Origin: an uncultured Rhodospirillaceae bacterium
GTDB lineage: Bacteria > Pseudomonadota > Alphaproteobacteria > Reyranellales > Reyranellaceae
Reading direction: 5' to 3'
DNA length: 64,000 bases
Assembly (NCBI GenBank): GCA_945952105.1
Contig: CAMFGZ010000012.1
Location: forward strand, 1 to 64,000
Shown here one piece after another: positions 13,748 through 31,782 of this stretch. Made by a program: the position numbers and the translations under genes. The notes below the pieces were generated by a model. The model made no database searches and was not told the DNA's origin. It saw nothing but the letters and a program-made list of their open reading frames with translations. Position 1 is the stretch's first letter. Each line of letters opens with the position of its first letter.

Positions 13748-13773
13748 GGAACCGCCGACAGGCCAGGCCCGTT
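13748..13773 (+). promoter_or_regulatory. EcfG-type promoter of the candidate small RNA
   Basis: Exact match to the alphaproteobacterial general stress promoter: GGAAC (13748-13752), 17 bases, CGTT (13770-13773). It points away from the SDR gene, into an intergenic stretch that ends in an intrinsic terminator. Confidence 0.72.
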
Positions 13774-13779
13774 AAACCT

Positions 13780-13873
13780 TCAGCAAGTACGAGTTCGCAG
13801 GGTGTCGGCCGGGCTGACCGGCAGTCTGTGAACAAGGGTGGCGGTGGTCGCGAGACCGCCGCCATTTCCTTTT
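13780..13873 (+). ncRNA. candidate general-stress small RNA (about 94 nt)
   Basis: Begins about 7 bases after an exact EcfG promoter and ends at an intrinsic terminator. The predicted RNA has an outer stem GTTCGCAG (13793-13800) with CTGTGAAC (13826-13833). It encloses a GCCGG/CCGGC hairpin (13808-13812 with 13818-13822). The terminator hairpin is GGCGGTGGTC-GCGA-GACCGCCGCC (13840-13863, one G-U pair, GNRA-type loop) followed by ATTTCCTTTT. There is no convincing coding potential in this segment. By position and promoter it resembles GsrN, the Caulobacter stress sRNA, but I cannot claim homology. The exact 5' end is inferred. Confidence 0.62.
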
Positions 13874-13998
13874 AGGGAGTGCGATGATCGCCAAGCCGCG
13901 ACAGCTCAAAGAAACGAGCACGCGGACAGGCCACAGGGCTCGCTTCGTGCCGCTAAAGCACTCGACGACCCTAGAGGACGAGCTACATCTTCAACGAG

Positions 13999-14229
13999 CT
14001 ATTTTTTTGACGGCTCGTCAGGCGTAGATTGTTTTTTCGAGCTCTTCGTCGCGTCCTTGTCGATCAGATTGAGAAGATCGTCAGGCAGCGGTTCGCTCGC
14101 GATTTCATCGTACATCGCGTGCAACTGCTTGTGCAGCCACATATCGAAGGGGCGATCATTGCCCTTGCTCTTGGGGCGCGCCGTCTTTTCAGCGCGCCCG
14201 CCCTCGGGCTTATCGTCATTGGTCGCCAT
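13999..14229 (-). CDS. nepR: NepR anti-sigma factor
   Basis: A 76-residue anti-sigma factor that holds EcfG inactive until phosphorylated PhyR titrates it. The NepR signature is clear: RPFDMWLHKQLHAMYDEIAS followed by EPLPDDLLNLID, which forms the two helices that bracket the sigma factor. A disordered Lys-rich tail (KSSKKQSTPDEPSKK) follows. The start at 14229 has GGGGAG 7 bases before it; upstream in-frame starts lack support. It lies 117 bases downstream of an EcfG-like sigma gene on the same strand. That gap (14230-14346) shows no promoter match, so nepR is probably transcribed from upstream. Confidence 0.93.
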   Translation of the reverse strand: MATNDDKPEGGRAEKTARPKSKGNDRPFDMWLHKQLHAMYDEIASEPLPDDLLNLIDKDATKSSKKQSTPDEPSKK

Positions 14230-14346
14230 GCCACGCTCCCCGGGGGCGGAAACCCACTCCGCGGGATCCTGTCCGACCCATCCAACTCTCCCCATGGGAC
14301 CGCTCATGACTATTTCGCACTCAAACGCGGGTCTGAAAAGAGGACT

Positions 14347-14919
14347 TTAGCGGGTCGCGACGGTTGCTTCTTCATCGTGACGGTCGACCGACGAGCGCGT
14401 CGCGTCGGAGGGGCGATGCGTTTCACCCTCGAGTAGCAGACGCTCCAGAGTGTCACGCGCCCGCGAGATGCGGCTCTTCACCGTGCCCACGGAAACGCCG
14501 GTATGTTCGGCAATCGTCTCATAGGGGAGGCCTTCGAGAACCGCGAGCAGGAGAGCCTCGCGCTGCGCAGCCGCAAGCTTGCCAAAGGCCGACATGAACT
14601 CACGCATGACCAATCCGCTGTCCTGATGGGGGGGATGAGACAGAGTCTCGGCGATGGCAGTGTCGACGGGCACCGTCGGCCGGCGGCGACGCAGGCCGGA
14701 GATGAATTCGTTACGCTGAATGCGGAACAGCCATGCGGCGAGGTTAGTGCCCGGCTGGAAGCTGTTGCGTCCAGTCAGGGCCTTGATGACGGTGTCATGC
14801 ACGAGATCGTCCGCCTGGTCGCGATCGCGGGTCAGCGACAGGGCATAGATGCGCAGGCGGGGCAGGATCGTCTTCAACTGCTCGTGGAAGTCGCCGGCGT
14901 CCTGGGTCTGCGTCGTCAT
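14347..14919 (-). CDS. EcfG-like ECF sigma factor (copy 1)
   Basis: A 190-residue group IV sigma factor without anti-sigma or accessory domains. Sigma region 2 (LPRLRIYALSLTRDRDQADDLVHDTVIKAL, quoted here only as a region, residues about 18-50) includes the RDRDQADDLVHDT core-binding helix, and NLAAWLFRIQRNEFISGLRR recognises the -10. Region 4 has GLPYETIAEHTGVSVGTVKSRISRAR, the -35 helix-turn-helix. GGGAGA lies 6-7 bases before the ATG at 14919. Adjacency to nepR marks it as a general stress sigma factor. No EcfG promoter with correct spacing was found in the 121-base upstream gap (14920-15040). Confidence 0.9.
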   Translation of the reverse strand: MTTQTQDAGDFHEQLKTILPRLRIYALSLTRDRDQADDLVHDTVIKALTGRNSFQPGTNLAAWLFRIQRNEFISGLRRRRPTVPVDTAIAETLSHPPHQDSGLVMREFMSAFGKLAAAQREALLLAVLEGLPYETIAEHTGVSVGTVKSRISRARDTLERLLLEGETHRPSDATRSSVDRHDEEATVATR

Positions 14920-15040
14920 GTAGGGTCTCCCGAAATGATGCGTCGTGTACTGAACGAATGTCGCAGCGACCGATTGGTTACACGACGACGACCAAATTTC
15001 GTAACTCATTGAAAAAAATGAAGAAATCCGGTGAAAAACC

Positions 15041-15505
15041 CTACTGGAGCTTTTCTGAAAGGAACTTGCGGGCTCGTGAAACCCGCGCCTTCAGCGTGCC
15101 GACGGAGCATCCGCACAAGCTTGCCGCTTCCTCGTAGGAAAAACCGCCCGCGCCGATCAGAACCAACGCTTCGCGCGATTGGGGATTGAGTTTCCACAGT
15201 TCCGAAGAGAGCTCCTTCAGGGCGAGCGTGGCTTCGGGATTGTCGACGGCCGGCAACGGGGCGGCGGCATCGTTGTCTATGGTGAGCGGGCGGCGGCGTT
15301 GGGTGCGAAGGTCCGAATAAAATCGGTTTCGCATGATGGTGAACAGCCAGCCCTTCAGGTTCGTGCCGGGCATGAACTGCTCTTGCTTGCTGAGCGCTGC
15401 AAGGATGGTGTTTTGCACCAGATCATCGGCCGCTTCCCGCTCGCGACACATGAAGCGCGCAAAAGCACGCAAATCAGGGAGAAGTGCGACGATCTCTTCC
15501 TTCAT
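15041..15505 (-). CDS. EcfG-like ECF sigma factor (copy 2)
   Basis: A 154-residue ECF sigma factor of the same group. Region 2 is visible as CREREAADDLVQNTILAAL and NLKGWLFTIMRNRFYSDLR. Region 4 is LNPQSREALVLIGAGGFSYEEAASLCGCSVGTLKARVSRAR, here named by its ends; the GFSYEEAASLCGC block is close to the classic EcfG form. The ATG at 15505 (AGGAT five bases upstream) is preferred over the GTG at 15508. Same strand as copy 1, 121 bases upstream. Having two EcfG paralogues beside nepR suggests division of labour or cross-regulation. Confidence 0.9.
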   Translation of the reverse strand: MKEEIVALLPDLRAFARFMCREREAADDLVQNTILAALSKQEQFMPGTNLKGWLFTIMRNRFYSDLRTQRRRPLTIDNDAAAPLPAVDNPEATLALKELSSELWKLNPQSREALVLIGAGGFSYEEAASLCGCSVGTLKARVSRARKFLSEKLQ

Positions 15506-15611
15506 CACTATCCTACTTGGGGATCATGCGCCTGGCGTGAAAGGGGAAATCGCACTGGCAACCACATCTAGGCGTTTTGTTGTGGGTTCGATACCTGGAA
15601 TCGGTTCGTGT

Positions 15612-15636
15612 GGAACCGCGGGCGCCTCCGGACGTT
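15612..15636 (+). promoter_or_regulatory. EcfG-type promoter for the membrane peptide and lipoprotein genes
   Basis: GGAAC (15612-15616), 16 bases, CGTT (15633-15636), 48 bases before the ATG at 15684. Both elements are exact. Confidence 0.65.
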
Positions 15637-15683
15637 GTGGTGCCGACGTTTAAACGATCCATCACGGGTCAAAAGAGGATCAC

Positions 15684-15767
15684 ATGGGACGCGCAGCTCT
15701 CCTTTGGTTTCTGGGGGTTCCGATCCCCGTTCTCCTGCTTATGTGGGTGCTGGGTTGGCTTCACTGA
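15684..15767 (+). CDS. 27-residue single-span membrane peptide
   Basis: A very short ORF translating to MGRAALLWFLGVPIPVLLLM followed by WVLGWLH. AAGAGG lies about 7 bases before the ATG, and an EcfG-type promoter lies 48 bases upstream. The product is almost entirely one hydrophobic helix with a Pro-kinked centre and Trp residues at the membrane border, typical of stress-induced alphaproteobacterial micropeptides. The lipoprotein gene follows 16 bases later and is probably on the same transcript. Function unknown. Confidence 0.65.
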   Translation: MGRAALLWFLGVPIPVLLLMWVLGWLH

Positions 15768-15783
15768 AGCGTGGGGGAAAGTC

Positions 15784-15999
15784 ATGAACAAGGTGTTGGT
15801 CTCTTCAGTGGTTCTTTCGCTGGCGTTTTTGACGGCAGCTTGCGGCAATCGACCTGTCGATCGCGCGCTTACCGGTGGTGCGATCGGGGCAGGCACCGGC
15901 GCTGTAGTCGGGTCGACCGTCGGCAATCCGGTGGCGGGTGCCGTCATCGGCGGTGCCGCGGGCGCCACGATCGGCGCGGTGACGGCGCCGGAGCGATAA
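15784..15999 (+). CDS. small lipoprotein with Gly-zipper domain
   Basis: A 71-residue lipoprotein. The signal peptide ends in the lipobox LTAAC, and the lipidated Cys is followed by GNRPVDRALTGG and a Gly/Ala repeat region (GAIGAGTGAVVGSTVGNPVA, GAVIGGAAGATIGAV). This is the YMGG/Gly-zipper type found in SlyB- and OmpA-linked proteins that insert into the outer membrane. GGGGGA precedes the ATG at 15784. It lies between EcfG-like sigma copy 2 and phyR and is probably co-expressed with the membrane peptide under stress. Function is unknown. Confidence 0.85.
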   Translation: MNKVLVSSVVLSLAFLTAACGNRPVDRALTGGAIGAGTGAVVGSTVGNPVAGAVIGGAAGATIGAVTAPER

Positions 16000-16025
16000 C
16001 CTACAAGATGGAGACGAGGCCATGC

Positions 16026-16048
16026 GGACGGGCGATTTGAGCCCGTCC
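16026..16048 (+). terminator. hairpin terminator after the lipoprotein gene
   Basis: Perfect 8-base stem GGACGGGC / GCCCGTCC with a 7-base loop, 26 bases after the stop codon. No strong T-run follows (GTACGTATTTGT), so termination may be partial. The remaining gap to phyR (to 16197) shows no promoter match I trust. Confidence 0.5.
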
Positions 16049-16197
16049 GTACGTATTTGTCGGGGTGGAGGCGCGCGGGCCGGCGCGTTCCTTGAGCGAG
16101 AGGCAAGTTGTCTCCGGGCGCACACGGCGTACTGTAGGCTGAACAGGCAGCGGGACGTGACGCCGGAAACGACTTTAGAGTGATGAGGGAGAACGAC

Positions 16198-17001
16198 GTG
16201 GCTGAAGAGCAGGTAGCTTCCAAGAAAGTGTCGGAAGCGATCACCAGGACGCTTCCGTTCCTGCGCCGGTACGCACGGGCCGTCACCGGCTCCCAGCAGC
16301 AGGGCGACGAATGGGTTCGTCTATGCGCCGAGGTGGCCGTTCAGCAGCCGGAACTAATCGCCGAGGCTGAAGACACGAAGGTCGGCGTGTTCGCGCTCTT
16401 CCACCGTCTTCGCCAGCCTTTCGGCGAGATCGAGGAAGCGGCCGCTGGCGGCGAGAGTGTTCGCGGTCGGCTGAAGGAATCGCTCACAGACATGGCGCCG
16501 ATGCAGCGCCAGGTGCTTCTCCTCACGGTCCTCGAAGGGTTCACCGTGAGCGACGCGGCACACATCCTGGGCGTTAGCGTCGACGAGGCGGAGCAGAGCC
16601 TCGAGGAAGCCCGTCGTGAACTGCAGCGGGTCGCTTCGGTCCGCATCCTCGTCATCGAGGACGAAGCCGTCATCGCGCTCGACGTCGCCGACATCGTGCG
16701 CAACGCCGGCCACGAGGTGGTCGGCATCGCCGCGACCGAGAAGACCGCCATCGAACTCGCCAAGAAGCATTCGCCGCATCTGGTGCTTGCGGACATCCAG
16801 CTTCGCGGCTCTGACAGCGGCATCTCGGCCGTGAACCAGATCATGAAGTCGATGTCCGTGCCGGTGATTTTCGTCACCGGATTTCCCGAGAGGCTTCTCA
16901 CCGGCAAGCAGGTGGAGCCGGCCTTCGTGATTTCGAAGCCTTTCGACCCCGACCTCCTCCGTGCGGCGATCGCCCAGGCGCTCGATACCGTATCGATCTG
17001 A
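16198..17001 (+). CDS. phyR: PhyR, anti-anti-sigma response regulator
   Basis: A 267-residue regulator that starts the general stress response. The N-terminal half mimics an ECF sigma factor (region 2-like LPFLRRYARAVTGSQQQGDEW; region 4-like QVLLLTVLEGFTVSDAAHILG) and binds NepR once the C-terminal receiver domain is phosphorylated. The receiver has acidic IEDEAV, phosphoacceptor Asp199 (LVLADIQLRG), the Thr of FVTGF and the Lys of ISKPF. A GTG start at 16198 with GAGGGAG 6 bases upstream is preferred to ATG 16183. The kinase gene starts 13 bases after the stop. Confidence 0.95.
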   Translation: MAEEQVASKKVSEAITRTLPFLRRYARAVTGSQQQGDEWVRLCAEVAVQQPELIAEAEDTKVGVFALFHRLRQPFGEIEEAAAGGESVRGRLKESLTDMAPMQRQVLLLTVLEGFTVSDAAHILGVSVDEAEQSLEEARRELQRVASVRILVIEDEAVIALDVADIVRNAGHEVVGIAATEKTAIELAKKHSPHLVLADIQLRGSDSGISAVNQIMKSMSVPVIFVTGFPERLLTGKQVEPAFVISKPFDPDLLRAAIAQALDTVSI

Positions 17002-17014
17002 GGCGAGACGGTTC

Positions 17015-18742
17015 GTGGCGCGATGGTCGCTTCGCTCCAAGCTCGTCACGCTCGTTGCGCTGGCCTTGCTGCCTGTCCTCGGGCTGGCGGCCTGGCAGGC
17101 TGAGAAGGAAGAAGCAGCCGGCATCGCCCGTAGGGGCGTTGCCCTGGGAGCGGTCGCCGACTTGTCGGTCGCGCGCTACGGCGGCCTGTTCGAGGCTTCG
17201 CAGAGGATGCTTTCGGCGGCGTGCGCCGACGAAGCCGTCGAGAGCAGCACCGGCGTCGATCCGCCGGCCGCGGCGGTCGGCCGTTGCGAGAGCTACCTGT
17301 CGAGGCTGCTTTCCTCCTACCCCGACCAGTATTCCACGGCGCTGGTGACGGATGAGCAGGGTGTCGCCCGCTGCGCCACGGTGCCGAACGCCATCGGAAT
17401 GAGCTTCGCCGACCGGGAGGTGTTCCAGAAAGTCCGGCCGGCTAAGGAAATCGTCGTCGGCGACACGATCGTGAGCCGCATCGCGCCCAAGCCCATCGTT
17501 CCCATCGCATTGCCGATCATTCGCGACGGCGCCTTCCGAGGCATGTGCGCCGTGGGCATCACGCTCAAGGCACTGGCCGAAACCGCGGTCCAGGTCGAGG
17601 GCGCTCCCGGTGTCGCCGTGGCCGTGGTCGACCGCTCCGGCTCGGCGATCGGCGGAGACGCCCAGTCGATGCGGCGGTTGCCGGTACCGGCCCGGCTTGC
17701 CGAAATCCTGACGGGAAGCCGCGTGGCCTTCTCGGATTTCGGCCAGGACGCCGCCTTCTACGAGTTTCGCGTCAGGCCCGTGGACGGCAGTGCGCTTTTC
17801 GTCGTGGCTTCGGCCCCGATTCCTGAGCGAGGGCTCCCATTGTCCAGCGCGTGGACCGGGTTCGGGCTTGTGGTGCTGTCGGCCCTCGTCGTCCTGCTTG
17901 TGATCTGGTTCGGCGCGGATCGCTGGTGCGTGCGGCCGCTGCGCTACATCCAGGATTTCGCCGACAAGGTGGCACGCGGCGAGAACATCGTGCTGGCGCC
18001 GCCGCGCCCGTGGTCGCCCGAAATGGCATCCGTCGGGGCGGGGGTGACAGCGATGGCGGAGGCCATCGCCAGCCGCGAGGCGAAGCTGCGGGCCAACGTC
18101 GAGCAGCGCGACCACATGCTCCGTGAAATACATCACAGGGTGAAGAACAATCTGCAGATGATATCGAGCCTGCTCAACCTTCAGGCCGGAGAGATCAGGT
18201 CGCCGCGCATCCGCCGCTTCTTCGGCGACGCGCAGAACCGCGTGCTCACCTTGTCGATCCTGCATCGCCATCTCTACGAGCGGTCGAGCTGGTCGCTGGT
18301 CGATTTCCAACAGTTCATCAGCGACCTGGTGCGGCAGATATCGGTCGGGCGCACGCCGGCGGGTCGGCAGGCTCCGCGCTACCATATCCGCGCGCCGATC
18401 ATGGCCGTGGGACCCGATACCGCAATCCCGATCGGTCTCATCGTCACCGAAGCCGTCAGCATCGCCCTCAGCCACGATTTCAGTCGGGCGCCGACGCCCG
18501 AGATTCGCATCGAGACCAGCGAGCGCGGCGAGGAAGTACAGCTCGTGATCGAGGACAATGGCGCCGCCCGGGACGACGTCGCGCAGGTGCCCGAGGGCAG
18601 GGGCGGATTCGCGCTGACTCTGATTCGCGGGCTGGCGATGCAGCTCGGCGGCGAGGTCACGATCGAGCGCAAGCCGGAAGGCGGCAACCGCGTCGTCGTC
18701 ACTTTCCCGACGCCGGCGGCGGACGATCCGGCAAATGCCTAG
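17015..18742 (+). CDS. HisKA_2/HWE-type sensor kinase with degenerate ATP-binding boxes (PhyK-like)
   Basis: A 575-residue membrane sensor. There is a membrane segment near residues 9-27, a periplasmic Cache-like domain to about 255, a second membrane segment (GFGLVVLSALVVLLVIWFG), a HAMP-like linker, and the phosphoacceptor REIHHRVKNNLQMISSLLNL with His374. The catalytic domain is odd. The N-box reads TEAVSIALSH, with Ile483 where the Mg-binding Asn is expected. The G1 box is DNGAARDD rather than DxGxG, and the G2 box is GGFALTLI. A position directly after phyR identifies it as the likely PhyR partner. It may act mainly as a phosphatase or need a partner kinase. A GTG start at 17015 is preferred, since no ATG lies near the first helix. 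Confidence 0.85.
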   Translation: MARWSLRSKLVTLVALALLPVLGLAAWQAEKEEAAGIARRGVALGAVADLSVARYGGLFEASQRMLSAACADEAVESSTGVDPPAAAVGRCESYLSRLLSSYPDQYSTALVTDEQGVARCATVPNAIGMSFADREVFQKVRPAKEIVVGDTIVSRIAPKPIVPIALPIIRDGAFRGMCAVGITLKALAETAVQVEGAPGVAVAVVDRSGSAIGGDAQSMRRLPVPARLAEILTGSRVAFSDFGQDAAFYEFRVRPVDGSALFVVASAPIPERGLPLSSAWTGFGLVVLSALVVLLVIWFGADRWCVRPLRYIQDFADKVARGENIVLAPPRPWSPEMASVGAGVTAMAEAIASREAKLRANVEQRDHMLREIHHRVKNNLQMISSLLNLQAGEIRSPRIRRFFGDAQNRVLTLSILHRHLYERSSWSLVDFQQFISDLVRQISVGRTPAGRQAPRYHIRAPIMAVGPDTAIPIGLIVTEAVSIALSHDFSRAPTPEIRIETSERGEEVQLVIEDNGAARDDVAQVPEGRGGFALTLIRGLAMQLGGEVTIERKPEGGNRVVVTFPTPAADDPANA

Positions 18743-21302
18743 CCTGCTGCGGTCGGCACGCTCGACCGGCGTGATCGCGGGCATCACGCTCGCCGTGCTG
18801 ATCGCGACCGGGCTGATGCTGGCCCTGACCCACTCCAAGTCCGCGGCACGCCAGCAGCGGCTCGTCGTCGCCAACTACGAGACGATGGCGCTGATGCGCG
18901 AAATGGTGATCGCCGTGCAGGACGCCGAGATCGGCATGCGCGGGTTCCTTCTCAGCGGCGACGTCACCAGCCTGGAACCCTACGAGCGGGCACGCCTGCG
19001 GATCGAATCCGGCATGCGGCTGCTCGAGGCCATGGTGGCCGGCGACCCCGACACGACACGCCAGTTCCAGGAGTTCCGGAGGGTCACAGCCCAGAAGTTC
19101 GATCAGCTCAACGCGACGGTCGGCGCCTATCAGCTCAATGGCCGCGAAGCGGCGCTCGCGCTCGACCGCACCGGTGCGGGCCGCGCGATGCTCGGGCAGG
19201 TCAGGCTGCTGGGCGATGCTCTGGTCGAGGGGCAGCGGCTCCTGCTGGCGAGACGCGTGACGGCCCTGCGGTCGGAGCAGGAGCAGGCGGACATTGCCGG
19301 CCTGCTGGTCATGGCCGGCGCGTTCGTCTGCCTGATCGCGGGCATCTACATCGTCGTGCGCAGTGCGACGCGGCTGGAGCGCAGCCAGTTTGCCCTGGCT
19401 GGCCGGTCGCAGCTCCTGCAGGCGACCCTCGAAAGCCTGCGTGATCCCATCTTCGTGATCGACGACGAGCGCACGGTGGTGGCGTGGAACGACGCTTTTG
19501 CCAGGCTCGCCCAGTGGGAGCCGGGAAAACAGGCGCCACCGACCCTGGAGCAGCTTCTGTCGGAGCGCTCACCCGCGACCAGGGCGCTGCTGCTGCCACT
19601 CGACCTCGGCGGCACGTCCTCGAAGGGTTCCGCGGTCCTCCGCGTCGCCCATGACGGGCGCGACTACGAGATCTATCGCGGTGAGATGTCGGGCGGTGGC
19701 GCGGTGGTGCGCTGCGTCGACATCACGGAGAAGCTGCATGACGAGGCGGCGCTTCGACAGGGCCAGAAGATGGAGGCCACCGGTCAGCTGACCGGCGGCA
19801 TGGCGCACGACTTCAACAATATCCTGCAGGTCATTCGTGCCAACCTTGACCTGCTGAAGGGCGAGGTCGGCGACAATGCGGCCATGGCCTCGCGCGTGCA
19901 GAGCGCCACGGCGGCCGCCGACCGCGGCGCCCGCCTGACACAGCAGCTCCTGGCCTTCGCACGCCGCCAGCCGTTGACGCCGCAGCCCACGAACGTGGCA
20001 CGTCTTGTCGGCGACCTCGCGGATCTGATGCGCCACTCGCTCGGCGAGCGCATCGCCATCGAGCTCAAGGTCGCCGACGCGCCGTGGAACGCCAAGGTCG
20101 ATGCCGGCCAGCTCGAGAACGCTATCCTCAACCTGTCAATCAATGCGCGCGACGCAATGCTCGACGGCGGCACTGTTCGGGTCGAGGTCTCGAACGCCAC
20201 GCTCGACCGCCGCTACGCCGCCCTCCATCCCGACGTGACGCCCGGGCCTTACGTGCTGGTCGACGTCAGCGATACCGGTACCGGCATGCCTCCCGAGGTC
20301 GCCGCGCAGGCCTTCGATCCGTTCTTCACGACCAAGGGCGATGGCAAAGGCACGGGCCTTGGTCTCAGCATGGTCTACGGCTTCGTGCGCCAGTCGAACG
20401 GTCATATCCGGATCGACAGTGCGATCGGGCAGGGGACCAGCGTCAAGCTCTACCTGCCGCGGACTGACGATCCGGTGATCGAAGAGGGAGCCGATGAAGG
20501 TACGGCGGTCAGCGGGAGCGAACGCATCCTCGTGGTCGAGGACAGCGACGATGTCCGGCGCGCGGTCGTCGACATGCTGACGGGCTGGGGGTACCGGGTC
20601 GAGGCGGCGGAGGATCCGGACGTTGCGGCGGCCCTTCTGCAGAAGGATTCGGCATTCGATCTGCTCTTCACGGACATCGTGATGCCCGGAACGATAACGG
20701 CCGTCGAACTCGCGCAACTGGCGCAACGCCTGAACCCGGGCATCGCCGTCCTGCTAACGTCCGGATTCGCCCGCGGGCTGATCCCCGATCACACCCGGTC
20801 CGGCTATCCCATGATCGCCAAGCCCTACAGCAGCGACGCTCTTTCGGCCAAGCTGCGCAGCGTCCTGGCCAACCGACGTCCCGTGGCGCCGCCATCGCCG
20901 GCGGAACCCGCGAGCTGGACCGGCGACCCTCCGCCGGGACCCGACCGGGCAAGACGGGTTCTGTTCGTCGAGGACGAGGTGGTCCTGCGCATGTCCACGA
21001 CCGACATGCTGGAGAGATTGGGATGTTCGGTGGCCGGGGTCGGCAGTGGCGAAGCGGCGCTGGACCTCCTTGCCCGGGGAGAGGGTTTCGATCTGCTCCT
21101 GACCGATGTCGGATTGCCGGGCATGAGCGGCGAAGAACTCGCAGCGAAAGTGCGGGAAAACTATCCGTCGCTCCCCGTGGTGATCGCGAGCGGCTACGGC
21201 CGCTCCGGCATGCAGGCAGAGCGTATGCAGTTCATTTCCAAACCGTATTCCTCCATCGATCTTCAGCAGGCCTTGGACCACGCCGTCCGAAGCGCGTCCT
21301 GA
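18735..21302 (+). CDS. CHASE3-PAS hybrid histidine kinase with two receiver domains
   Basis: An 855-residue hybrid kinase overlapping the preceding kinase gene by 8 bases. Order of domains: membrane helix (12-31), CHASE3 sensor (about 35-175; [13 protein letters not shown] is typical), membrane helix (about 188-208), PAS (about 222-330), HisKA with His358 ([12 protein letters not shown]), an HATPase with intact N-box ([10 protein letters not shown]) and G boxes ([14 protein letters not shown]), receiver 1 with Asp647 ([10 protein letters not shown]) and receiver 2 with Asp791 ([10 protein letters not shown]). Unlike its neighbour, it looks catalytically complete. Context suggests it supplies or drains phosphoryl groups in the PhyR pathway. 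Confidence 0.93.
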
Positions 21303-21344: not shown

Positions 21345-21370
21345 GCAACCCCGCACGATTTTGCGGCGTT
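21345..21370 (+). promoter_or_regulatory. EcfG-like promoter for the 49-residue protein
   Basis: GCAAC (21345-21349), 17 bases, CGTT (21367-21370), 36 bases before the ATG at 21406. One base differs from the canonical -35 (GGAAC). The same GCAAC form recurs at five other sites in this window. Confidence 0.45.
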
Positions 21371-21405: not shown

Positions 21406-21555
21406 ATGAAGTCCAAGCAGCTGCCCGAAACGTCGAACATGGTGACCCAGGACCAGGCCGATCACAGCCCTCTGGCGGGCGAACTCATGGACCTCTATGC
21501 GGCGATGCTGATCGTCATACCGGTAGCCTTCCTGCTGAAATCCTTTTGGGTCTGA
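21406..21555 (+). CDS. 49-residue single-span membrane protein
   Basis: A small ORF with an excellent ribosome site (GGAGGGG) before the ATG at 21406. The N-terminal 24 residues are polar (KSKQLPETSNMVTQDQADHS). A hydrophobic helix (MDLYAAMLIVIPVAFLLKSF) ends the protein. It lies between the hybrid kinase and the CsbD gene, each of which belongs to the stress island, and has its own EcfG-like promoter. No family recognised. Confidence 0.58.
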   Translation: MKSKQLPETSNMVTQDQADHSPLAGELMDLYAAMLIVIPVAFLLKSFWV

Positions 21556-21587: not shown

Positions 21588-21612
21588 GCAACCTCGGCTG
21601 ACGAGCGCCGTT
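21588..21612 (+). promoter_or_regulatory. EcfG-like promoter for the CsbD gene
   Basis: GCAAC (21588-21592), 16 bases, CGTT (21609-21612), 29 bases before the ATG at 21641. CsbD-like proteins are stress-induced in many bacteria, which supports the assignment. Confidence 0.5.
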
Positions 21613-21640: not shown

Positions 21641-21964
21641 ATGCGTTCAATCGCCATGCTCGCGGCCTGCGCGGGCCTCGCCGTCGTTTCCCTTCCGCTC
21701 GTTGCGTCTGCCCAAACCAAGGGGCAGACGACCACCACCCAGAGCGACGTCAAGACCATCTGGGAGAAGTTCAAGGGGAGCTGGGGCCAGACCAAGGGCG
21801 CTGTAAAGGAGCAGTGGGGAAAGCTGACCGATGACGACCTGCTCGCCATCGAGGGGCGCCGCGACCAGCTCGTCGGCAAGATCCAGACCCGCTACGGTAT
21901 TTCCAAGGAAGAGGCCGAGGCTCAGGTCGGCACGTGGGAGCAGCGTCGTTTCCGGGACATGTGA
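21641..21964 (+). CDS. exported CsbD-family stress protein
   Basis: A 107-residue protein with a cleavable signal peptide (ending PLVASA). The CsbD-like core is TIWEKFKGSWGQTKGAVKEQ, WGKLTDDDLLAIEGRRDQLV and GKIQTRYGISKEEAEAQV. Cytosolic CsbD is a general stress protein of Bacillus; signal-bearing versions are common in Alphaproteobacteria. The AGGAGGT ribosome site lies 8 bases before the ATG. The next gene starts 12 bases after its stop, so the two are likely one transcript ending at the terminator at 22591. Confidence 0.9.
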   Translation: MRSIAMLAACAGLAVVSLPLVASAQTKGQTTTTQSDVKTIWEKFKGSWGQTKGAVKEQWGKLTDDDLLAIEGRRDQLVGKIQTRYGISKEEAEAQVGTWEQRRFRDM

Positions 21965-24249: not shown

Positions 24250-24275
24250 GCAACCCCGCCATGGGATCCGGCGTT
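24250..24275 (+). promoter_or_regulatory. EcfG-like promoter for the Cys-repeat lipoprotein
   Basis: GCAAC (24250-24254), 17 bases, CGTT (24272-24275), 38 bases before the ATG at 24313. Confidence 0.45.
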
Positions 24276-24312: not shown

Positions 24313-24624
24313 ATGCCGGGTCGCATACTGGTTATTGCCGTTGCAGCGATGGCACTCGGAGCCTGTGCGACCGAAACGCGGTTCGTGGTCGCGGACGACG
24401 CCTGTACGGCCTACGGTTTTCGCGCCGGTACGGCGGAGTATGCGAACTGCCAGTCGCGCGAGCAGGCGGCACGCCGCCAGGGAAGGGTGGCGAATACCGC
24501 CTATTCTTCGGATCAAGTGATGGCACAGTCCCAGGAAGCGTGCCGCTCCTACGGCATCGTACCGCCGAGCGCGGGCTTCGACCAGTGTGTTCAACGGGAA
24601 TTCGCGGCGCGACGGCCGCTTTAA
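24313..24624 (+). CDS. lipoprotein with two tandem Cys-containing repeats
   Basis: A 103-residue lipoprotein (lipobox ALGAC). The mature part holds two ungapped 27-residue repeats: one from DACTAYGFRAGTAEYANCQ to REQAARR, the other from EACRSYGIVPPSAGFDQCVQ to REFAARR. They share the pattern (D/E)AC..YG......(A)...C..RE.AARR. Each repeat carries two cysteines 15 residues apart, which could form an internal disulfide. Similar small lipoproteins are common in Rhizobiales and Rhodospirillales without assigned roles. The GNAT gene follows 9 bases later, so they are probably co-transcribed. Confidence 0.8.
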   Translation: MPGRILVIAVAAMALGACATETRFVVADDACTAYGFRAGTAEYANCQSREQAARRQGRVANTAYSSDQVMAQSQEACRSYGIVPPSAGFDQCVQREFAARRPL

Positions 24625-24633
24625 GGGCCTGAC

Positions 24634-25299: not shown

Positions 25300-25315
25300 T
25301 CGTTCAATGAGCCTA

Positions 25316-25450
25316 TCAGTGCGGGATCAGCAGGTACCAGGCCAGCGCGAGCGCTGCGATGGCGCCCACCGACGATAGGGCAAGAACCAGGAAGACGCGA
25401 CCGGTGACGACACCGCTTCTCGCTTCGGTGGGGGTGAGTTCGGGCTGCAT
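25316..25450 (-). CDS. 44-residue single-span membrane protein
   Basis: The reverse strand encodes [20 protein letters not shown], followed by a hydrophobic helix [20 protein letters not shown] and LIPH. The ribosome site is strong (GGAGGT four bases before the ATG at 25450). It starts 61 bases from a GCAAC-N17-CGTT promoter on the same strand and precedes the DUF2177 gene. No family recognised; the product is likely an inner-membrane stress peptide. Confidence 0.62.
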
Positions 25451-25510
25451 GCTACCTCCGCTGTTTGGATTGTTGTCCAAGCGAGGCGCGATCGCCTCGA
25501 TCGCGAAACC

Positions 25511-25536
25511 AACGCCGCTTCGCCGGACAGGGTTGC
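25511..25536 (-). promoter_or_regulatory. EcfG-like promoter facing the 44-residue protein and DUF2177 genes
   Basis: Read on the reverse strand: GCAAC (25536-25532), 17 bases, CGTT (25514-25511). It lies back to back with the canonical forward EcfG promoter at 25542. Confidence 0.4.
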
Positions 25537-25541
25537 CCGCC

Positions 25542-25567
25542 GGAACCGTCCCTTGCCTCCTGGCGTT
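25542..25567 (+). promoter_or_regulatory. EcfG-type promoter for the DUF1328 gene
   Basis: Exact GGAAC (25542-25546), 17 bases, CGTT (25564-25567), 45 bases before the ATG at 25612. Confidence 0.68.
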
Positions 25568-25611
25568 ACCCGCGCAGGAACCTGCCCGCCGGGCAACAGA
25601 GGAGTGAGAAG

Positions 25612-25779
25612 ATGTTGTATTGGTCCCTGATGTTTCTTGTCATTGCACTGATCGCCGGCATCTTCGGCTTCGGCGGCATCGCTTCGACAGCCACCGGCAT
25701 CGCGCAGATCCTTTTCGTGATCGCGCTTGTCCTTTTCATCGTCAGCCTGTTCACAGGCTTCGCCCGCCGCAACCTTTAG
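25612..25779 (+). CDS. DUF1328 (UPF0391) small membrane protein
   Basis: A 55-residue, two-helix membrane protein of the DUF1328/YtjA family. It opens [20 protein letters not shown], followed by [20 protein letters not shown] and a short basic tail FARRNL; every part fits the family. GAGGAG precedes the ATG. These proteins are commonly induced in general stress and stationary phase. An exact EcfG promoter lies upstream. Its stop overlaps the end of the convergent ATP-grasp-like gene by four bases. Confidence 0.93.
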
Positions 25780-26678
25780 CCGGCGAAGTGCTCGCGCAGA
25801 AGGAAGCGGGCCTCGTTTCCTGCCGCGCGATTCCAGCAATTTACGATGGCCACCCGGAAGCCTCCGGGTGGCATTGCATGTCGTTCCGGTGCGACTTCCT
25901 CGTGAAAGGTGATCTGGACGCTCGATACGGCCGGTAGGTTTTCGATGCGTTTCACGAGCGACCGGGGAGGGTGCCGGTAACGCGGCCCATGCGGCAGGAA
26001 AAGCACCACGCTATATCCCGTGCGCCTGTCGGTATCATCGAACACCCATTCTTTCTTCTCGTAGAGGCGGACCAGTGCCTCGACCCAGCCAGCGCCGTAG
26101 AGGTCCGGCCACTGGTCGGCGAACCTCAGATGCACCTCGATGATGCGTCCGCCGATCGTTTCCAGGTTGATCATGCCGGTATAGCCCGCGAGATGCTTGC
26201 GGCACCAAACGCCGCCCCACGTTTCGACCGCCGGGTCGCCACGGTCGAGAATCTTCCAGTGATCGAACGTGCCATCGCCCGAGGCGACTCCGATGGCATG
26301 GCGCCACCATTTTGGTACGCCATCGACCAGTGCAACGTCGCTGCTGATGTGCTCGCCTTCGAGCAGGGTCATCCACATGTGACCGGGGGTGTATGCGACT
26401 TCGTACTCTCTCTTCGAATGCAACGTTCGGCTGCCGACGCCCATGCCTTTCAGGTTATAGATCGGCTTTGAAAAGACGGGATACACGCTCGGTGCAATCC
26501 CGTGGGGCGCAGCTTCCAGACCCTGCCGAGTCGCGACCTGCAGCTTGTCGTAGGCCCAGCGATGATCCGGGTTCCAAAGCCAGGCATCCGAGTCCTCAGT
26601 TGGTATGAAGATGCTGGCAGGGCATGCAGCGTTCTCGAAATATTGTTTGCGCCACGGGTCGATCTCGCAAATCGGCAC
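25776..26678 (-). CDS. ATP-grasp-like protein next to the ergothioneine genes
   Basis: A 300-residue protein with an ATP-grasp pattern that I infer from motifs. They are [20 protein letters not shown] (Lys plus Gly-rich loop), [20 protein letters not shown] (Glu and the D-x-h-h-x-DG strand) and [21 protein letters not shown]. In the last, Glu-Val-His replaces the usual Glu-x-Asn metal pair. A GTG start at 26678 follows GAGGGA. It is divergent from egtB with a 102-base gap. ATP-grasp ligases join carboxylates to amines or thiols, so it could modify ergothioneine or a precursor. It may instead be unrelated. The exact family is not recognised. Confidence 0.6.
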
Positions 26679-26736
26679 TTGCTTCCCTCACGCCTACGAG
26701 CGGACGCTGACAAGGTGGTCGCAAGGCGCCGCTCTT

Positions 26737-26762
26737 GCAACTGAGACGCGCGGCACCACGTT
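26737..26762 (+). promoter_or_regulatory. possible EcfG-like promoter for egtBD
   Basis: GCAAC (26737-26741), 17 bases, CGTT (26759-26762). The start codon is only 19 bases away, so the leader would begin almost at the GGAGG ribosome site (26772-26776). This makes it the least certain of the set. Confidence 0.3.
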
Positions 26763-26780
26763 ACGGCCTGCGGAGGTACC

Positions 26781-27965
26781 GTGCCCCATTTGCAGACGCG
26801 TTCCGTGCAGGCGCACGGTCTCGACGCCTTTCTTGCTGTTCGTCGTCGTACGGAAGAATTGGCTGCACCACTGTCCCCCGAGGACCAGACGGTGCAATCG
26901 ATGCCGGACGCCAGTCCGACGAAATGGCATCTCGCGCACACGACATGGTTCTTCGAAACCTTCGTCCTGCGCCCGCATGCGTCCGGCTATCAGCCCTTCG
27001 ACCCGGCGTTCGAGTATCTCTTCAATTCCTATTACGAGGCCGTGGGGCCGCGGCATCCTCGACCGCAACGCGGATTGATCACGCGGCCCGGTGTCGAGGA
27101 AGTGCTTTCGTATCGCCGGCATGTCACGGACGCGATGAAGGATTTTCTGAGCAGCGATCATAACGTGCAGGGGCTCGTGGAGCTTGGTCTGCACCACGAG
27201 CAACAGCATCAGGAACTGATCCTGATGGACATCAAGCATGCCCTGTCGATGAATCCGCTTCGGCCCGCGTATCGACCGGCGCGCATGCAGGCGTTGCAGT
27301 CACCGGAGTCGTTGGCCTGGCGTGAATTCGAGGGCGGGCTGGTCGAGACCGGCCATGACGGGCAGGGATTCGCCTTCGACAATGAGGGGCCGCGCCATCG
27401 TTCCTGGCTGGATGCTTTCGCTATCGCCATGCGTCCCGTGAATTGCGGCGAGTATCTCGCCTTCATCGAGGATGGCGGTTACCGGCGTGCGGAGTTCTGG
27501 CTGTCGGCCGGCTGGGACTGCGTGAACAGCCGGGGCTGGGAGGCGCCTCTCTACTGGGAGAAGAGGAACGGCGTCTGGCGCGTCTTCACCCTGTCGGGCC
27601 TCGAGCCGGTCGATCCCTCGCGCCCCGTTTGTCATGTGAGCGCTTTCGAGGCGGCGGCCTTCGCCAAGTGGTCGGGCAAGCGGCTGCCCCGCGAAGCCGA
27701 ATGGGAGGTCGCGTCGGAGGTCCTGCAAGGCAAGGGCGAAGTCTGGGAATGGACCGCCAGCCCATACGTGGCCTATCCGGGCTATCGGGAGCCGGCTGGC
27801 GCTGTCGGCGAGTACAACGGCAAGTTCATGGCGAGCCAGATGGTCCTGCGCGGCGGCTGCGGCGCGACGCCGGAAGACCATGTCCGTCCCACCTATCGCA
27901 ATTTCTTTCCGCCCGACGCGCGTTGGATGTTCGGTGGAATTCGCCTCGCGGAGGATCTTCGATGA
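26781..27965 (+). CDS. egtB: ergothioneine biosynthesis sulfoxide synthase
   Basis: A 394-residue non-heme iron enzyme that attaches a cysteine-derived sulfur to trimethylhistidine. The DinB-like N-terminal domain has [11 protein letters not shown] (His50, His53) and [10 protein letters not shown] (His139 and His143 of the HxxxH iron site). The C-terminal half is a formylglycine-generating-enzyme-like domain ending in [20 protein letters not shown] and [16 protein letters not shown]. The GTG start at 26781 has GGAGGT just upstream. No egtA or egtC is near, so it may use cysteine directly rather than gamma-glutamylcysteine (inference). It overlaps egtD by four bases. Confidence 0.95.
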
Positions 27966-28921
27966 ACGTGCCGCTTCTCGCCCTCGACGACGGCGCGCTT
28001 GCCGACCGTGACGATTTCCGCCGCGACGTGCTCGCGGGCCTCGGCGCTCTTCCGCGCGCGGTTCCCGCCAAGTATCTCTACGACGCCCGTGGCTCGGCGC
28101 TGTTCGACGCGATCTGCGAACTGCCGGAATACTATCCGACACGTACCGAGACGGCGATCTTGCGCGACTGCGCGGACGAGATCGCAAAGCTTGCCGGGCC
28201 GGGCTGCGCGCTCGTCGAATACGGCAGTGGCTCAAGCGTCAAGACCCGCATCCTGCTCGATGCGATGCCCGACCTTCACGCCTACGTGCCGATCGACATC
28301 TCGCGCCAGCATCTCGACGCGACGGCGGCCCGCCTGCGAAACGACTATGTCGGGCTGCGCGTCGATCCGGTGAGCGGCGACTATATGGCGCTCGACGCGC
28401 TGCCGGCGGGGATCAACGGTGCGCGGCGCATCGGCTTCTTCCCCGGCTCGACGATCGGCAATCTGACACCGGACGAGGCGATCCTGTTCCTGCGGCGCGC
28501 GCGCCGCCTGCTCCGTAGCAATGGCGCGCTGGTGCTGGGCGTCGATCTCAGGAAGGCCCCTCAGCGTCTGCATGACGCCTACAACGATGCGGCCGGCGTC
28601 ACGGCTCAGTTCACGCTTAACCTGCTGAGGCGCATGAACCGTGAACTCGATGCCAACTTCGACCTTTCGGCCTTCGCTCATGACGCGTTCTACAACGAGG
28701 CCGAAGGGCGCATCGAAATCTACCTCCGAAGCCTGCGCGACCAGACGGTGACGATCGCAGGCCGCCGCTTCGTCTTCGCCGCGGGTGAGCGCGTTCATAC
28801 CGAGTACTCGTACAAGTACGACAATGCCGGCATCGCCGAACTGGCGCGAAAGGGCGGGTTCTCCATCGCCCATACCTGGACCGATCCTGATCGCCTGTTC
28901 GCCGTGGTCTTTCTGAAGTAG
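27962..28921 (+). CDS. egtD: L-histidine N-alpha-methyltransferase
   Basis: A 319-residue SAM-dependent methyltransferase that trimethylates histidine to hercynine, the first step of ergothioneine synthesis. Motifs are [28 protein letters not shown] (EgtD hallmark, given by its ends), [18 protein letters not shown] for SAM binding, [20 protein letters not shown] and the C-terminal [13 protein letters not shown] overlap with egtB gives coupled translation. A strong hairpin follows at 28937. Confidence 0.96.
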
Positions 28922-28936
28922 TTCCCCCAAACAGGC

Positions 28937-28967
28937 AGCCCGCCCCTGACGGGGTCAGGAGCGGGCT
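28937..28967 (+). terminator. hairpin terminator after egtD
   Basis: AGCCCGC (28937-28943), C, CCTGAC, loop GGG, GTCAGG, A, GCGGGCT (28961-28967): 13 base pairs broken by one C/A mismatch, 16 bases after the stop. It lacks a T-tract. The rest of the gap (to 29099) contains CCAACGGCGGTTGG near 29040 and nothing else I can name. Confidence 0.55.
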
Positions 28968-29099
28968 TGGTGTAGGGCCGGACGGGGAGAGAGGCGCTGC
29001 TGAGCGGGGGCAGAGGCAACGCCAGTTATCCAGCCATACGGAACCAACGGCGGTTGGCCTGTGAAAGTTGCCGAACGCCCGAAAAAAAGAATCTACCCA

Positions 29100-29333
29100 C
29101 TAAGTCTTTGATTCTGCCGCAATAATTTCCGCGAGACGGGCCGTAAACTCGGCATGTACCGCCTCGTCGCGGATCTTCGGCAAAAATTCCCGCAGCATTT
29201 CCGCTCTCGCACCCGCCGGCGCTGCTTCGAGCTCCGTCTTGAACTGAGCAATCTCCGCCACTGTCGCGAAGCCCATGTAGGCATCGTCGGCCTCGTGGGC
29301 GAAGCAGGTGGGCGAAGCGGGGTCGTCGGGCAT
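29100..29333 (-). CDS. small helical protein of unknown function
   Basis: A 77-residue protein starting MPDDPASPTCFAHEADDAYM, with the remainder predicted as two or three charged helices (EIAQFKTELEAAPAGARAEM, LREFLPKIRDEAVHAEFTARL). The ATG at 29333 lies 7 bases after the stop of the amidohydrolase gene on the same strand, so it is probably the last gene of that operon. Its ribosome site is weak, suggesting coupling. No family recognised. Confidence 0.65.
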   Translation of the reverse strand: MPDDPASPTCFAHEADDAYMGFATVAEIAQFKTELEAAPAGARAEMLREFLPKIRDEAVHAEFTARLAEIIAAESKT

Positions 29334-29340
29334 GGTCGGC

Positions 29341-30468
29341 TTAGAGCGGGTGCCACCATTTGCCTGCAAGCACGACGCCTGTCGACAGGAGCCGCTGCTC
29401 GCCCACCAATTTCTCTCCGATCGAATCGGCGTAGTCGAACCTGCCACTCGCCCGGTCGATCACCGTGGCGTCGCCGACGTTGCCCACCTTCAGCGTGCCG
29501 ATCTCCGGCCGGTTGATCGCGGCGGCGGCATTCACGGTGGCGAGCCTGATCACGGTGGGAAGATCCACGCCGAGGCACAGGAACTTCGACATGGTCGTCA
29601 GCAGGTCGAAGGCCGGGCCCTCGATCGAGATCGCGTGCACGTCGGAGGAGATGACGTCGGGCAGGAAGCCGGCCGCCAGCATCTTGCGCGTCGTGCCGAA
29701 GCCGAACGAGCCGCCGCCATGGCCGATGTCGAAGATAACGCCGCGCTCGCGCGCCGCCAGGATCTCGTCGCGCACGTCGCCGCCCGGCTTGACGGGCGCG
29801 TTGGGGAAAGGGCGGAAGCAGTGGGTGAGGATGTCGCCCGGCCGCAGGCGGCTCACCACCTCGAGGCGCGATGGCGGCGGCGAGTCGAGATGCGCCATCA
29901 GCGGCAGGCCGGTCTCCTCGGCGACGTCGAGGGCGATGTCGAGCGGCATGATGCCGGAGTCGCCGCTCGCCGACTTGCCGACGCGCACCTTCACGCCGAG
30001 GATCAGGTCCTTGTGCTCGCGCGCGACACGAACGGCTTCGCGTGCATCGAGCAGCCGCATGTCGGCGGCTTCGCCCACCATCACCGTCTTGGAGAAGGCG
30101 AAGATGCCGGGGAAGGACACGTTGAGGAACGGCAGGATGCGGACTGGCGAGGTCTCGATCACATGCTTGCGGAAGCCATGGAAGTTGCCAGGGCCGGCGC
30201 TGCCGGCGTCGATGAAGGTCGTGACGCCGCCGGTGCGCGCGACCAGTTCGGCTTCGACGCCGAGCGAGGTGCCGCCCCAGTAGACGTGCGTGTGCAGGTC
30301 GATCAGGCCGGGCGAGACGATCTTGCCCGCGACGTCGCGTGTGTCCTTGCCTGACAGCCCGTCACCGATCGCGGCCACCTTGCCGCCGGCGAAGGCGATG
30401 TCGGTCGTCTTGTCGAGTCCCTGCGAGGGATCGATGACGCGGCCACCCTTGAGGACCAGATCGTTCAT
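29341..30468 (-). CDS. amidohydrolase/deacetylase family metallohydrolase
   Basis: A 375-residue cyclic amidohydrolase of the dihydroorotase-like superfamily. The N-terminal cap is LVLKGGRVIDPSQGLDK. The metal site opens with GLIDLHTHVYWGG (HxH), with a probable carbamylated Lys in LGVKVRVGKS, further His ligands in LMAHLDSPP and ILTHCFRPF, and the Asp in VISSDVHAI. A C-terminal VGNVGDATVIDRASGRF strand completes the cap. The branch includes enzymes annotated as deacetylases or dihydroorotase-like proteins; the substrate is unknown. The ATG at 30468 is preferred over longer starts reaching into the neighbour. Confidence 0.9.
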   Translation of the reverse strand: MNDLVLKGGRVIDPSQGLDKTTDIAFAGGKVAAIGDGLSGKDTRDVAGKIVSPGLIDLHTHVYWGGTSLGVEAELVARTGGVTTFIDAGSAGPGNFHGFRKHVIETSPVRILPFLNVSFPGIFAFSKTVMVGEAADMRLLDAREAVRVAREHKDLILGVKVRVGKSASGDSGIMPLDIALDVAEETGLPLMAHLDSPPPSRLEVVSRLRPGDILTHCFRPFPNAPVKPGGDVRDEILAARERGVIFDIGHGGGSFGFGTTRKMLAAGFLPDVISSDVHAISIEGPAFDLLTTMSKFLCLGVDLPTVIRLATVNAAAAINRPEIGTLKVGNVGDATVIDRASGRFDYADSIGEKLVGEQRLLSTGVVLAGKWWHPL

Positions 30469-30493
30469 TTCCGTTTCTTCCTTCCGACGCGTA

Positions 30494-31705
30494 TCACTTG
30501 CCCATCCTACTCCACTCGCGCCCCAATGCCCCAACTCGGGGCAGGGCAAGGCCTTCGAGGCCGAGCCACTCGGCCATTAGGCGCAGCTCCTCCCGCATCG
30601 GGGCAGCGACCTCGCTTGCCTCGATTCCCGGTTCGAGATGGGCAGCCGGCACCAGCAACCTGGAGTGGGCGCGGTCCGATTTCAGGTCGACTCGGCCAAC
30701 CAGCCGGTCGCCCAGCAGGAATGGCAGCACATAGTAGCCGTGCTTGCGCTTGGCGACGGGCGTGTAGATCTCGATGCGATAGAAGAAGTCGAAGATCCGC
30801 TCGGTGCGGTCGCGCTCCCAGATCAACGGGTCGAACGGCGCCAGCAGCGCCCGCGCCTCGATGTGCCGGGGCTGCCGCGCCTCGGGGTGCAGATAGGCCG
30901 GCGCTTTCCAGCCCTCGACGTCGACCGGGAGCAGGTCTCCCATCTCGACGAGTTCGGACAGTCGCGCTTTGGTATCCGTGACGGGCAGGCGGAAATAGTC
31001 ACGCAGGTCGAATTCGGTGGCGACGCCCAGCGCGCGGGCCGAGATTCGCAGGAGCTCGCGCTGGGCCTCCTCGGGGGACGGCGTGGGCAGGGCCTGGATA
31101 TCGACCGGCAGCACGCGCTGCGTGAGGTCGTAGACCCGCTCGAAGGTACCGCGCCGCGTCGCCGTGGTGACGATGCCGGCGTAGAACAGCCATTCGAGAG
31201 CGAGCTTGCCGTCGTTCCAACCCCACCACGGCCCACGCTTGGGCCCGCCGTCGGCCAATTCGGAGGCGGCGATGGGCCCGCGATCCTCGACCTCGCGACG
31301 AACCTCCTCGATGTAGGCGGCCTTCTCTCGGCGGAACTCCTGCAACTTGCCCTTGCTGGTGCCGGCGGCGGCGCGCTCCATGCGCCAGCGCAGCAGCGGC
31401 TGCGAGGCGAGCGGCAGCAGCGAGGCCTCGTGCGCCCAGAACTCGAAGAGCCCGCGGCGGCTCTGGCGGCCCCAGGCCAGCCCGTCGAGATGCGCGCTGT
31501 CATAGTTTCCCAGCCGGGAGAACAGCGGCAGGTAGTGAGCGCGCGCCAGCACGTTGACGGAGTCGATCTGGAGAAGGCCGAGCCGGTCGATGGAGCGCTT
31601 CACGTGGCCGAGATTGGAGGCGCCTTCGGGGCGCTGCTTACCGAAGCCTTGGGCCGCCAGCGCGATGCGCCGGGCGGCGGCCGCCGAAATTCTCTGACGC
31701 TTCAC
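30494..31705 (-). CDS. YcaQ/AlkZ-type DNA glycosylase (HTH_42 winged-helix protein)
   Basis: About 403 residues of the HTH_42 family. Studied members (E. coli YcaQ/AlkX, Streptomyces AlkZ) are DNA glycosylases that unhook interstrand crosslinks made by alkylating agents. The N-terminal ARRIALAAQGFG and the catalytic-region motif LGLLQIDSVNVLARAHYLP contain QID, the QxD form of YcaQ rather than the QxQ of AlkZ. Tandem winged-helix regions follow (LFEFWAHEASLLP; LLAPFDPLIWERDR). The start is GTG 31705 or TTG 31708, with no strong ribosome site. It is divergent from the VOC gene. Confidence 0.9.
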   Translation of the reverse strand: MKRQRISAAAARRIALAAQGFGKQRPEGASNLGHVKRSIDRLGLLQIDSVNVLARAHYLPLFSRLGNYDSAHLDGLAWGRQSRRGLFEFWAHEASLLPLASQPLLRWRMERAAAGTSKGKLQEFRREKAAYIEEVRREVEDRGPIAASELADGGPKRGPWWGWNDGKLALEWLFYAGIVTTATRRGTFERVYDLTQRVLPVDIQALPTPSPEEAQRELLRISARALGVATEFDLRDYFRLPVTDTKARLSELVEMGDLLPVDVEGWKAPAYLHPEARQPRHIEARALLAPFDPLIWERDRTERIFDFFYRIEIYTPVAKRKHGYYVLPFLLGDRLVGRVDLKSDRAHSRLLVPAAHLEPGIEASEVAAPMREELRLMAEWLGLEGLALPRVGALGREWSRMGK

Positions 31706-31757
31706 CAACGATGCCCCGTTTTGCCGGAGCGCAGAGTTGCCGATGCGGACCGCAGGC

Positions 31758-31782
31758 GCAACCGTCGTACCGTGCTGGCGTT
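31758..31782 (+). promoter_or_regulatory. EcfG-like promoter for the VOC gene
   Basis: GCAAC (31758-31762), 16 bases, CGTT (31779-31782), 37 bases before the ATG at 31819, within the 113-base divergent gap. Confidence 0.42.

What the first reader, a model, noticed from the sequence alone, without database searches (positions are those of the whole stretch)
13748..31782. Nine EcfG-type promoters clustered around the sigma factor locus
I found three GGAAC-N16/17-CGTT sites (13748, 15612, 25542) and six GCAAC-N16/17-CGTT sites (21345, 21588, 24250, reverse 25536, 26737, 31758). All nine are outside coding sequence, and most lie 29-48 bases before a start codon. With equal base frequencies about two such matches are expected by chance on both strands of 64 kb. 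The targets include CsbD, DUF1328 and small envelope proteins, known stress-type genes. The C at the second -35 position looks like an accepted variant in this organism.
Basis: partly seen in the sequence, partly recalled or inferred. Interest (0 to 1): 0.82.

Follow-up and report, generated by a model that had tools for sequence, protein, structure and literature searches.

The report
Conserved stress-promoter cluster with small RNAs
The cluster of promoters beside the general-stress sigma genes of this Reyranella bacterium is real and conserved across the genus, GCAAC works in place of GGAAC (as already seen in Sphingopyxis), and two of the promoters appear to drive previously undescribed structured small RNAs.

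Summary
All nine sites exist at the stated places. An exact scan adds two: 29071(-), which is real, and 41521(+), inside a gene. The window holds 11 matches against about 2 expected from the genome rate. The locus is a PhyR-NepR-EcfG general stress response (GSR) locus with two tandem ECF sigma genes. In 38 Reyranella loci, ten promoters keep their place while spacers diverge (39% identity). Base -34 is C or G (149/73), never A or T. Genome-wide, GCAACY sites are as intergenic as GGAACY (74% and 63%, against 13% for controls) and precede stress-type genes. GCAAC is not new: it is the second commonest GSR -35 box in Sphingopyxis granuli and is transcribed in vitro (PMC7083833). The Ala/Val-172 sigma paralog is not needed for it: a sister genus with one Ser-type EcfG uses both boxes. 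New here: sites 29071(-) and 13748(+) precede two covarying, terminator-ended RNA genes found in 44 and 31 of 48 Reyranella genomes, absent from Rfam. They resemble Caulobacter GsrN. Transcription is inferred, not shown.

The parts
13748..13773 (+). GGAACC-N-CGTT promoter, reads sRNA-B
   Evidence: syntenic site in 31 of 36 Reyranella loci
13784..13871 (+). sRNA-B candidate: hairpin plus intrinsic terminator, next to nepR
   Evidence: fold z -4.8; 12 of 30 pairs with compensatory change; 31 of 48 genus genomes at E<=1e-4
13999..14307 (-). NepR anti-sigma factor
   Evidence: Pfam NepR 29.7 bits, cut-off 25.7
14347..14919 (-). ECF sigma 1 (EcfG-type), Ser at the sigmaE S172 position
15041..15508 (-). 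ECF sigma 2 (EcfG-type paralog), Ala at the S172 position
15612..15636 (+). GGAACC promoter of a 27-aa membrane ORF (15684-15767) and glycine-zipper lipoprotein (15784-15999)
   Evidence: 22 of 22 loci with a site have G at -34
16180..17001 (+). PhyR anti-anti-sigma response regulator
   Evidence: NF006623 301.8 bits, cut-off 240
17015..18742 (+). HisKA_2/HWE histidine kinase, PhyK-like
18735..21302 (+). hybrid histidine kinase
21345..21370 (+). GCAACC promoter of a small membrane protein (21406-21555)
   Evidence: 28 of 28 loci C at -34
21588..21612 (+). GCAACC promoter of CsbD protein (21641-21964)
   Evidence: 32 of 32 conserved; 25 C, 7 G
24250..24275 (+). GCAACC promoter of a 103-aa lipoprotein-like gene (24313-24624)
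25511..25536 (-). GCAACC promoter of a 44-aa membrane protein (25450-25316)
   Evidence: 27 of 27 C at -34
25542..25567 (+). GGAACC promoter of DUF1328 protein (25612-25779)
   Evidence: 21 of 22 conserved; 17 G, 4 C
26737..26762 (+). GCAACT promoter of egtB-egtD (26781-28921)
   Evidence: 12 of 15 conserved, all C; domains
29046..29071 (-).
   Evidence: 16 of 16 conserved, all C
28923..29045 (-). sRNA-A candidate: two nested helices with a C-rich loop, then an intrinsic terminator
   Evidence: fold z -3.5; 14 of 26 pairs with compensatory change; 44 of 48 genus genomes
31758..31782 (+). GCAACC promoter of a glyoxalase-family gene (31819-32214)
   Evidence: seen also in one close relative (L031, as GCAACG); weakest of the nine

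Best explanation
This is the core general-stress-response (GSR) locus of a Reyranella species. Stress kinases phosphorylate PhyR, PhyR takes NepR away, and the freed EcfG-type sigma factors start transcription at G(G/C)AACY-N15/16-CGTT promoters clustered around the locus. G and C at -34 are both accepted, A and T are not. Two of these promoters drive short structured RNAs rather than proteins: sRNA-A beyond egtD and sRNA-B beside nepR, which probably act post-transcriptionally like Caulobacter GsrN. Shown: sites, conservation, base restriction, genome-wide intergenic bias, gene content, RNA covariation. Inferred: the partner switch, sigma binding, transcription, RNA function.
For: Exact sites and clustering. 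PhyR, NepR, HisKA_2/HWE kinase and two ECF sigmas in one locus. Ten promoters in synteny over 38 loci, 222 distinct sites, -34 = 149 C, 73 G, 0 A, 0 T, spacer identity 39%. Genome-wide intergenic bias of both boxes and none for wrong spacing or wrong -10; GWAACY not enriched. Targets: ribosome hibernation factor, topoisomerase IB, superoxide dismutase, encapsulated-ferritin-like protein, CsbD, trehalose-phosphatase, KaiC, PRC, CBS, MscS, phytochrome-HWE kinase. Same result in a sister genus with one Ser-type EcfG. RNA covariation against shuffled and slid controls and genus-wide distribution. The sRNA-A promoter is present upstream in two genomes not used for its model, G061 and G062 (L286, L285), and not found as an exact match in a third, G065 (L288).
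Against: No transcript data. The EcfG names rest on synteny and ECF domains; the best NCBIfam models score below their cut-offs. No consensus site was found before the sigma genes in the own genome, although autoregulation is common. Gene calls outside the window are from a home-made caller. 31758 has little comparative support. One sRNA-A locus (L288) lacks an exact promoter match.
Confidence: 0.9

Rival explanations
1. The two sigma paralogs divide the work: sigma 1 (Ser at position 172) reads GGAAC and sigma 2 (Ala/Val at 172, which cannot make the hydrogen bond to the -34 purine) reads GCAAC.
For: The position is Ser in all sigma 1 hits and Ala or Val in all sigma 2 hits. In the sigmaE structure S172 bonds the -34 purine (PMC6713349). 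Five promoters never swap G and C.
Against: G074 of a sister genus has one Ser-type EcfG and no sigma 2, yet 28 of 35 GCAACY sites are intergenic, like GGAACY (26 of 35). In Sphingopyxis a GCAAC promoter was used as a template for both EcfG paralogs in vitro (PMC7083833). Not excluded as a preference rather than a requirement.
Confidence: 0.15
2. G and C at -34 are fully equivalent and drift neutrally.
For: Orthologous promoters swapped by clade: CsbD, DUF1328, the 13748-type site. The sister-genus egtB site is GGAACC while Reyranella has GCAAC.
Against: Five promoters are invariant over 12-28 loci; 11 G/C changes in 222 site-taxa at -34 against 364 in 1905 at spacer G/C positions. Spacers can also change through A or T, which explains perhaps a factor of two of the fourfold deficit.
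Confidence: 0.3
3. The GCAAC sites are chance matches in a GC-rich genome.
For: The pattern is short; about two per 64 kb occur at the genome rate.
Against: Clustering, synteny, intergenic bias and base restriction.
Confidence: 0.01
4. sRNA-A and sRNA-B are only terminators or leader fragments, not independent RNAs.
For: Both end in terminator-like hairpins near convergent genes (egtD, nepR), which a bidirectional terminator could explain.
Against: sRNA-A starts at a conserved promoter at a fixed short distance, and both RNAs have further upstream helices with compensatory changes, helices 1 and 2 of A1 and helix 1 of A2; sRNA-A has invariant C-rich unpaired stretches.
Confidence: 0.15

Closest known systems
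EcfG general stress regulon of Sphingopyxis granuli TFA (PMC7083833)
   Same: Two EcfG paralogs; GGAAC and GCAAC are the two commonest -35 boxes; CGTT -10; egtB and egtD are in the regulon.
   Different: There the -10 varies widely and nepR-ecfG carries a GSR promoter; here no consensus site precedes the sigma genes. Evidence here is comparative, not experimental.
EcfG regulon of Sphingomonas melonis Fr1 (PMC6599016)
   Same: EcfG-dependent genes listed with GCAAC motifs, among them a TIGR03440 protein (from my own knowledge the EgtB family) and a general stress protein 26.
   Different: Consensus reported as GGAAC-N17-20-GTT; no cluster of this kind reported in the passages read.
GsrN, sigmaT-dependent sRNA of Caulobacter (PMC5869019)
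   Same: EcfG-type promoter, about 100 nt, intrinsic terminator, exposed C-rich loop (sRNA-A); homologs usually lie near the GSR locus (sRNA-B, sRNA-A).
   Different: No sequence link tested; the authors' GsrN BLAST hits were limited to Caulobacteraceae. Function here unknown.

Membership tests
PhyR-NepR-EcfG general stress system | PhyR with sigma-like domain plus receiver | tested here: met
   NF006623 above cut-off, Pfam PhyR_sigma2
PhyR-NepR-EcfG general stress system | NepR anti-sigma factor next to the sigma gene | tested here: met
   Pfam NepR above cut-off; NCBIfam NepR model below cut-off
PhyR-NepR-EcfG general stress system | ECF sigma of EcfG type | tested here: inconclusive
   ECF domains clear; best NCBIfam models below cut-off; assignment by synteny
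PhyR-NepR-EcfG general stress system | GGAAC-N16/17-CGTT promoters before stress genes | tested here: met
   with GCAAC as equal alternative
PhyR-NepR-EcfG general stress system | EcfG promoter upstream of nepR/ecfG (autoregulation; common, not required) | tested here: not met
   no consensus site before sigma 2 in the own genome
PhyR-NepR-EcfG general stress system | Sigma-dependent transcription of targets | not testable with these tools
   needs mutants and RNA
GsrN-like sRNA | EcfG-type promoter directly upstream | tested here: met
GsrN-like sRNA | Exposed C-rich loop in the 5' part | tested here: met
   sRNA-A: invariant CCCC...GCUC.GC loop and CUCCCC stretch; sRNA-B lacks it
GsrN-like sRNA | Sequence homology to GsrN | not tested
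   no Rfam match; GsrN sequence not compared
GsrN-like sRNA | Post-transcriptional control of stress genes | not testable with these tools
   needs experiment

The most novel reading that the evidence does not exclude
Reyranella carries two genus-wide small RNA genes under EcfG control inside its stress locus, and its stress promoters fall into two maintained -35 classes (GG and GC) that set different outputs, partly through two sigma paralogs differing at the -34-contacting residue.
Probability: 0.2. Interest if true: 0.75.

Novelty: new member of a known kind. Interest (0 to 1): 0.55.

Why it matters
It gives a deeply conserved, experimentally tractable set of general-stress promoters outside the usual model orders, shows by comparison alone that -34 accepts only G or C, and points to two stress-induced small RNA genes that no RNA family in Rfam covers. 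The promoter-by-promoter retention of GG or GC makes the question of what the second -35 base does directly testable.

Tried and rejected
Raw genome counts against reversed patterns were too blunt (GGAACY looks hardly enriched), so position relative to genes was used instead. The idea that sigma 2 is required for GCAAC was tested and rejected with G074. Searching for an EcfG site before the sigma genes gave only matches with one or more mismatches. The match at 41521 is inside a gene and was dropped. Rfam gave nothing in 11-34 kb. Reyranella genomes without the sigma locus as natural controls were indecisive: G009 and G018 lack both sigmas and sRNA-A, but G023 and G056 lack a detected sigma locus and still have sRNA-A.

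Full report
Observation. The own genome (5.46 Mb, 77 contigs) has 77 GGAAC and 99 GCAAC matches, or 2.06 per 64 kb; the window has 11 (P about 7e-6). 41521 is inside a gene. The other ten are noncoding.

The locus. From left to right: NepR(-), ECF sigma 1(-), ECF sigma 2(-), a 27-aa ORF and a glycine-zipper lipoprotein(+), PhyR(+), a HisKA_2/HWE kinase(+), a hybrid kinase(+), small proteins, CsbD, DUF1328, egtB-egtD. This is the arrangement of the alphaproteobacterial general stress response. Genome records of the nearest loci name Reyranella.

Conservation. 42 of 48 Reyranella genomes at least 90% complete have sigma 1 and 42 have sigma 2. In syntenic stretches the same promoters stand before the same genes. 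Over 38 loci and ten promoters there are 222 distinct sites once shared ones are removed: 149 have C at -34, 73 have G, none A or T, although A and T were allowed in the search. Spacer identity is 39%. Five promoters never change: small protein 21345-type (28 C), 25536-type (27 C), egtB (12 C), 29071-type (16 C), 15612-type (22 G). Others switch by clade, for example CsbD (25 C, 7 G). On a tree of locus proteins, -34 shows 11 G/C steps in 222 site-taxa against 364 in 1905 for spacer G/C positions. Spacers can also pass through A or T, so part of this deficit is expected; I take it as suggestive of promoter-specific selection, not proof.

Genome-wide test. In 0.83 Mb around all G(G/C)AACY sites plus random stretches, 89% coding, 34 of 46 GCAACY and 24 of 38 GGAACY sites outside the window are intergenic. 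Wrong spacings and wrong -10 boxes together give 8 of 61 (tests). GWAACY shows no excess (16 against 20 for the reversed pattern in the own genome). Genes after the sites include a ribosome hibernation factor, topoisomerase IB, Fe/Mn superoxide dismutase, an encapsulated-ferritin-like protein, CsbD, trehalose-phosphatase, KaiC, PRC-barrel, CBS, MscS, pyridoxamine-oxidase-like proteins and a phytochrome-HWE kinase; the superoxide dismutase, a second CsbD, topoisomerase IB and a few others follow boxes with a purine at position 6.

Which sigma reads GCAAC. In the E. coli sigmaE complex S172 and T169 contact the -34 purine (PMC6713349). The equivalent residue is Ser in all sigma 1 hits and Ala or Val in all sigma 2 hits, which suggested that sigma 2 reads GCAAC. 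The test: G074, of a sister genus, has a single Ser-type EcfG and no sigma 2, and there 28 of 35 GCAACY and 26 of 35 GGAACY sites are intergenic. So sigma 2 is not required. A quantitative preference remains possible.

Two RNA genes. Downstream of 29071(-) there is no protein gene; instead about 120 bases are conserved up to a strong terminator hairpin. Alignment and folding give a closing helix, an inner helix with a C-rich loop, an unpaired CUCUCCCC stretch and the terminator. Of 26 pairs, 14 show changes on both sides; 97.6% of cells pair, against 90.7% in shuffles and 37-48% in slid versions. A covariance model finds it in 44 of 48 Reyranella genomes, about 14 of which contributed to the model, with nothing convincing outside. 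Downstream of 13748(+) a second RNA, a long hairpin followed by a terminator, lies beside nepR; 12 of 30 pairs change on both sides and 31 of 48 genomes have it at E<=1e-4. In several relatives a small protein gene lies between that promoter and the RNA. Rfam has no match in this stretch.

Against what is known. GCAAC was reported as the second commonest -35 box of the Sphingopyxis granuli GSR, was chosen as an in vitro template for both EcfG paralogs, and egtB/egtD were placed in that regulon (PMC7083833). S. melonis lists GCAAC motifs, including one for a TIGR03440 gene (PMC6599016). So the promoter finding extends a known pattern to another order. EcfG-dependent small RNAs near the GSR locus are known from GsrN and its proposed counterparts (PMC5869019); the two RNAs here are new candidates of that kind, with sRNA-A the closer in features.

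Limits. No RNA data exist in the tools; promoter function, start sites and RNA function are inferred. Gene calls outside the window are approximate. The 31758 site is supported mainly by position.

Noticed in passing
window 41521-41545(+): An eleventh exact GCAAC-N16-CGTT match, inside a coding ORF; most likely chance.
   Followed up: partly
L150:2-2407(-), promoter at L150:2472: A phytochrome with HWE kinase domain follows a GCAACC site, so a red-light sensor kinase may be both input and output of the stress system.
   Followed up: no
L269, L270, L271 (G074 contig 5, about 10-72 kb): A second dense island of G(G/C)AACY sites, about 15 in 62 kb, away from the sigma locus in the sister genus.
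   Followed up: no
window 25776-26678(-): A conserved 300-aa protein without Pfam match, divergent from egtB in the relatives examined, also beside egtB in G074.
   Followed up: no
L158:2854-2907: Overlapping GCAACR sites on both strands between a topoisomerase IB gene and a ROK-domain gene: one stretch reads as a promoter in both directions.
   Followed up: no
window 15041-15508(-) and 14347-14919(-): Tandem EcfG-type sigma paralogs with a fixed Ser versus Ala/Val difference at the -34-contacting position, kept across the genus.
   Followed up: yes
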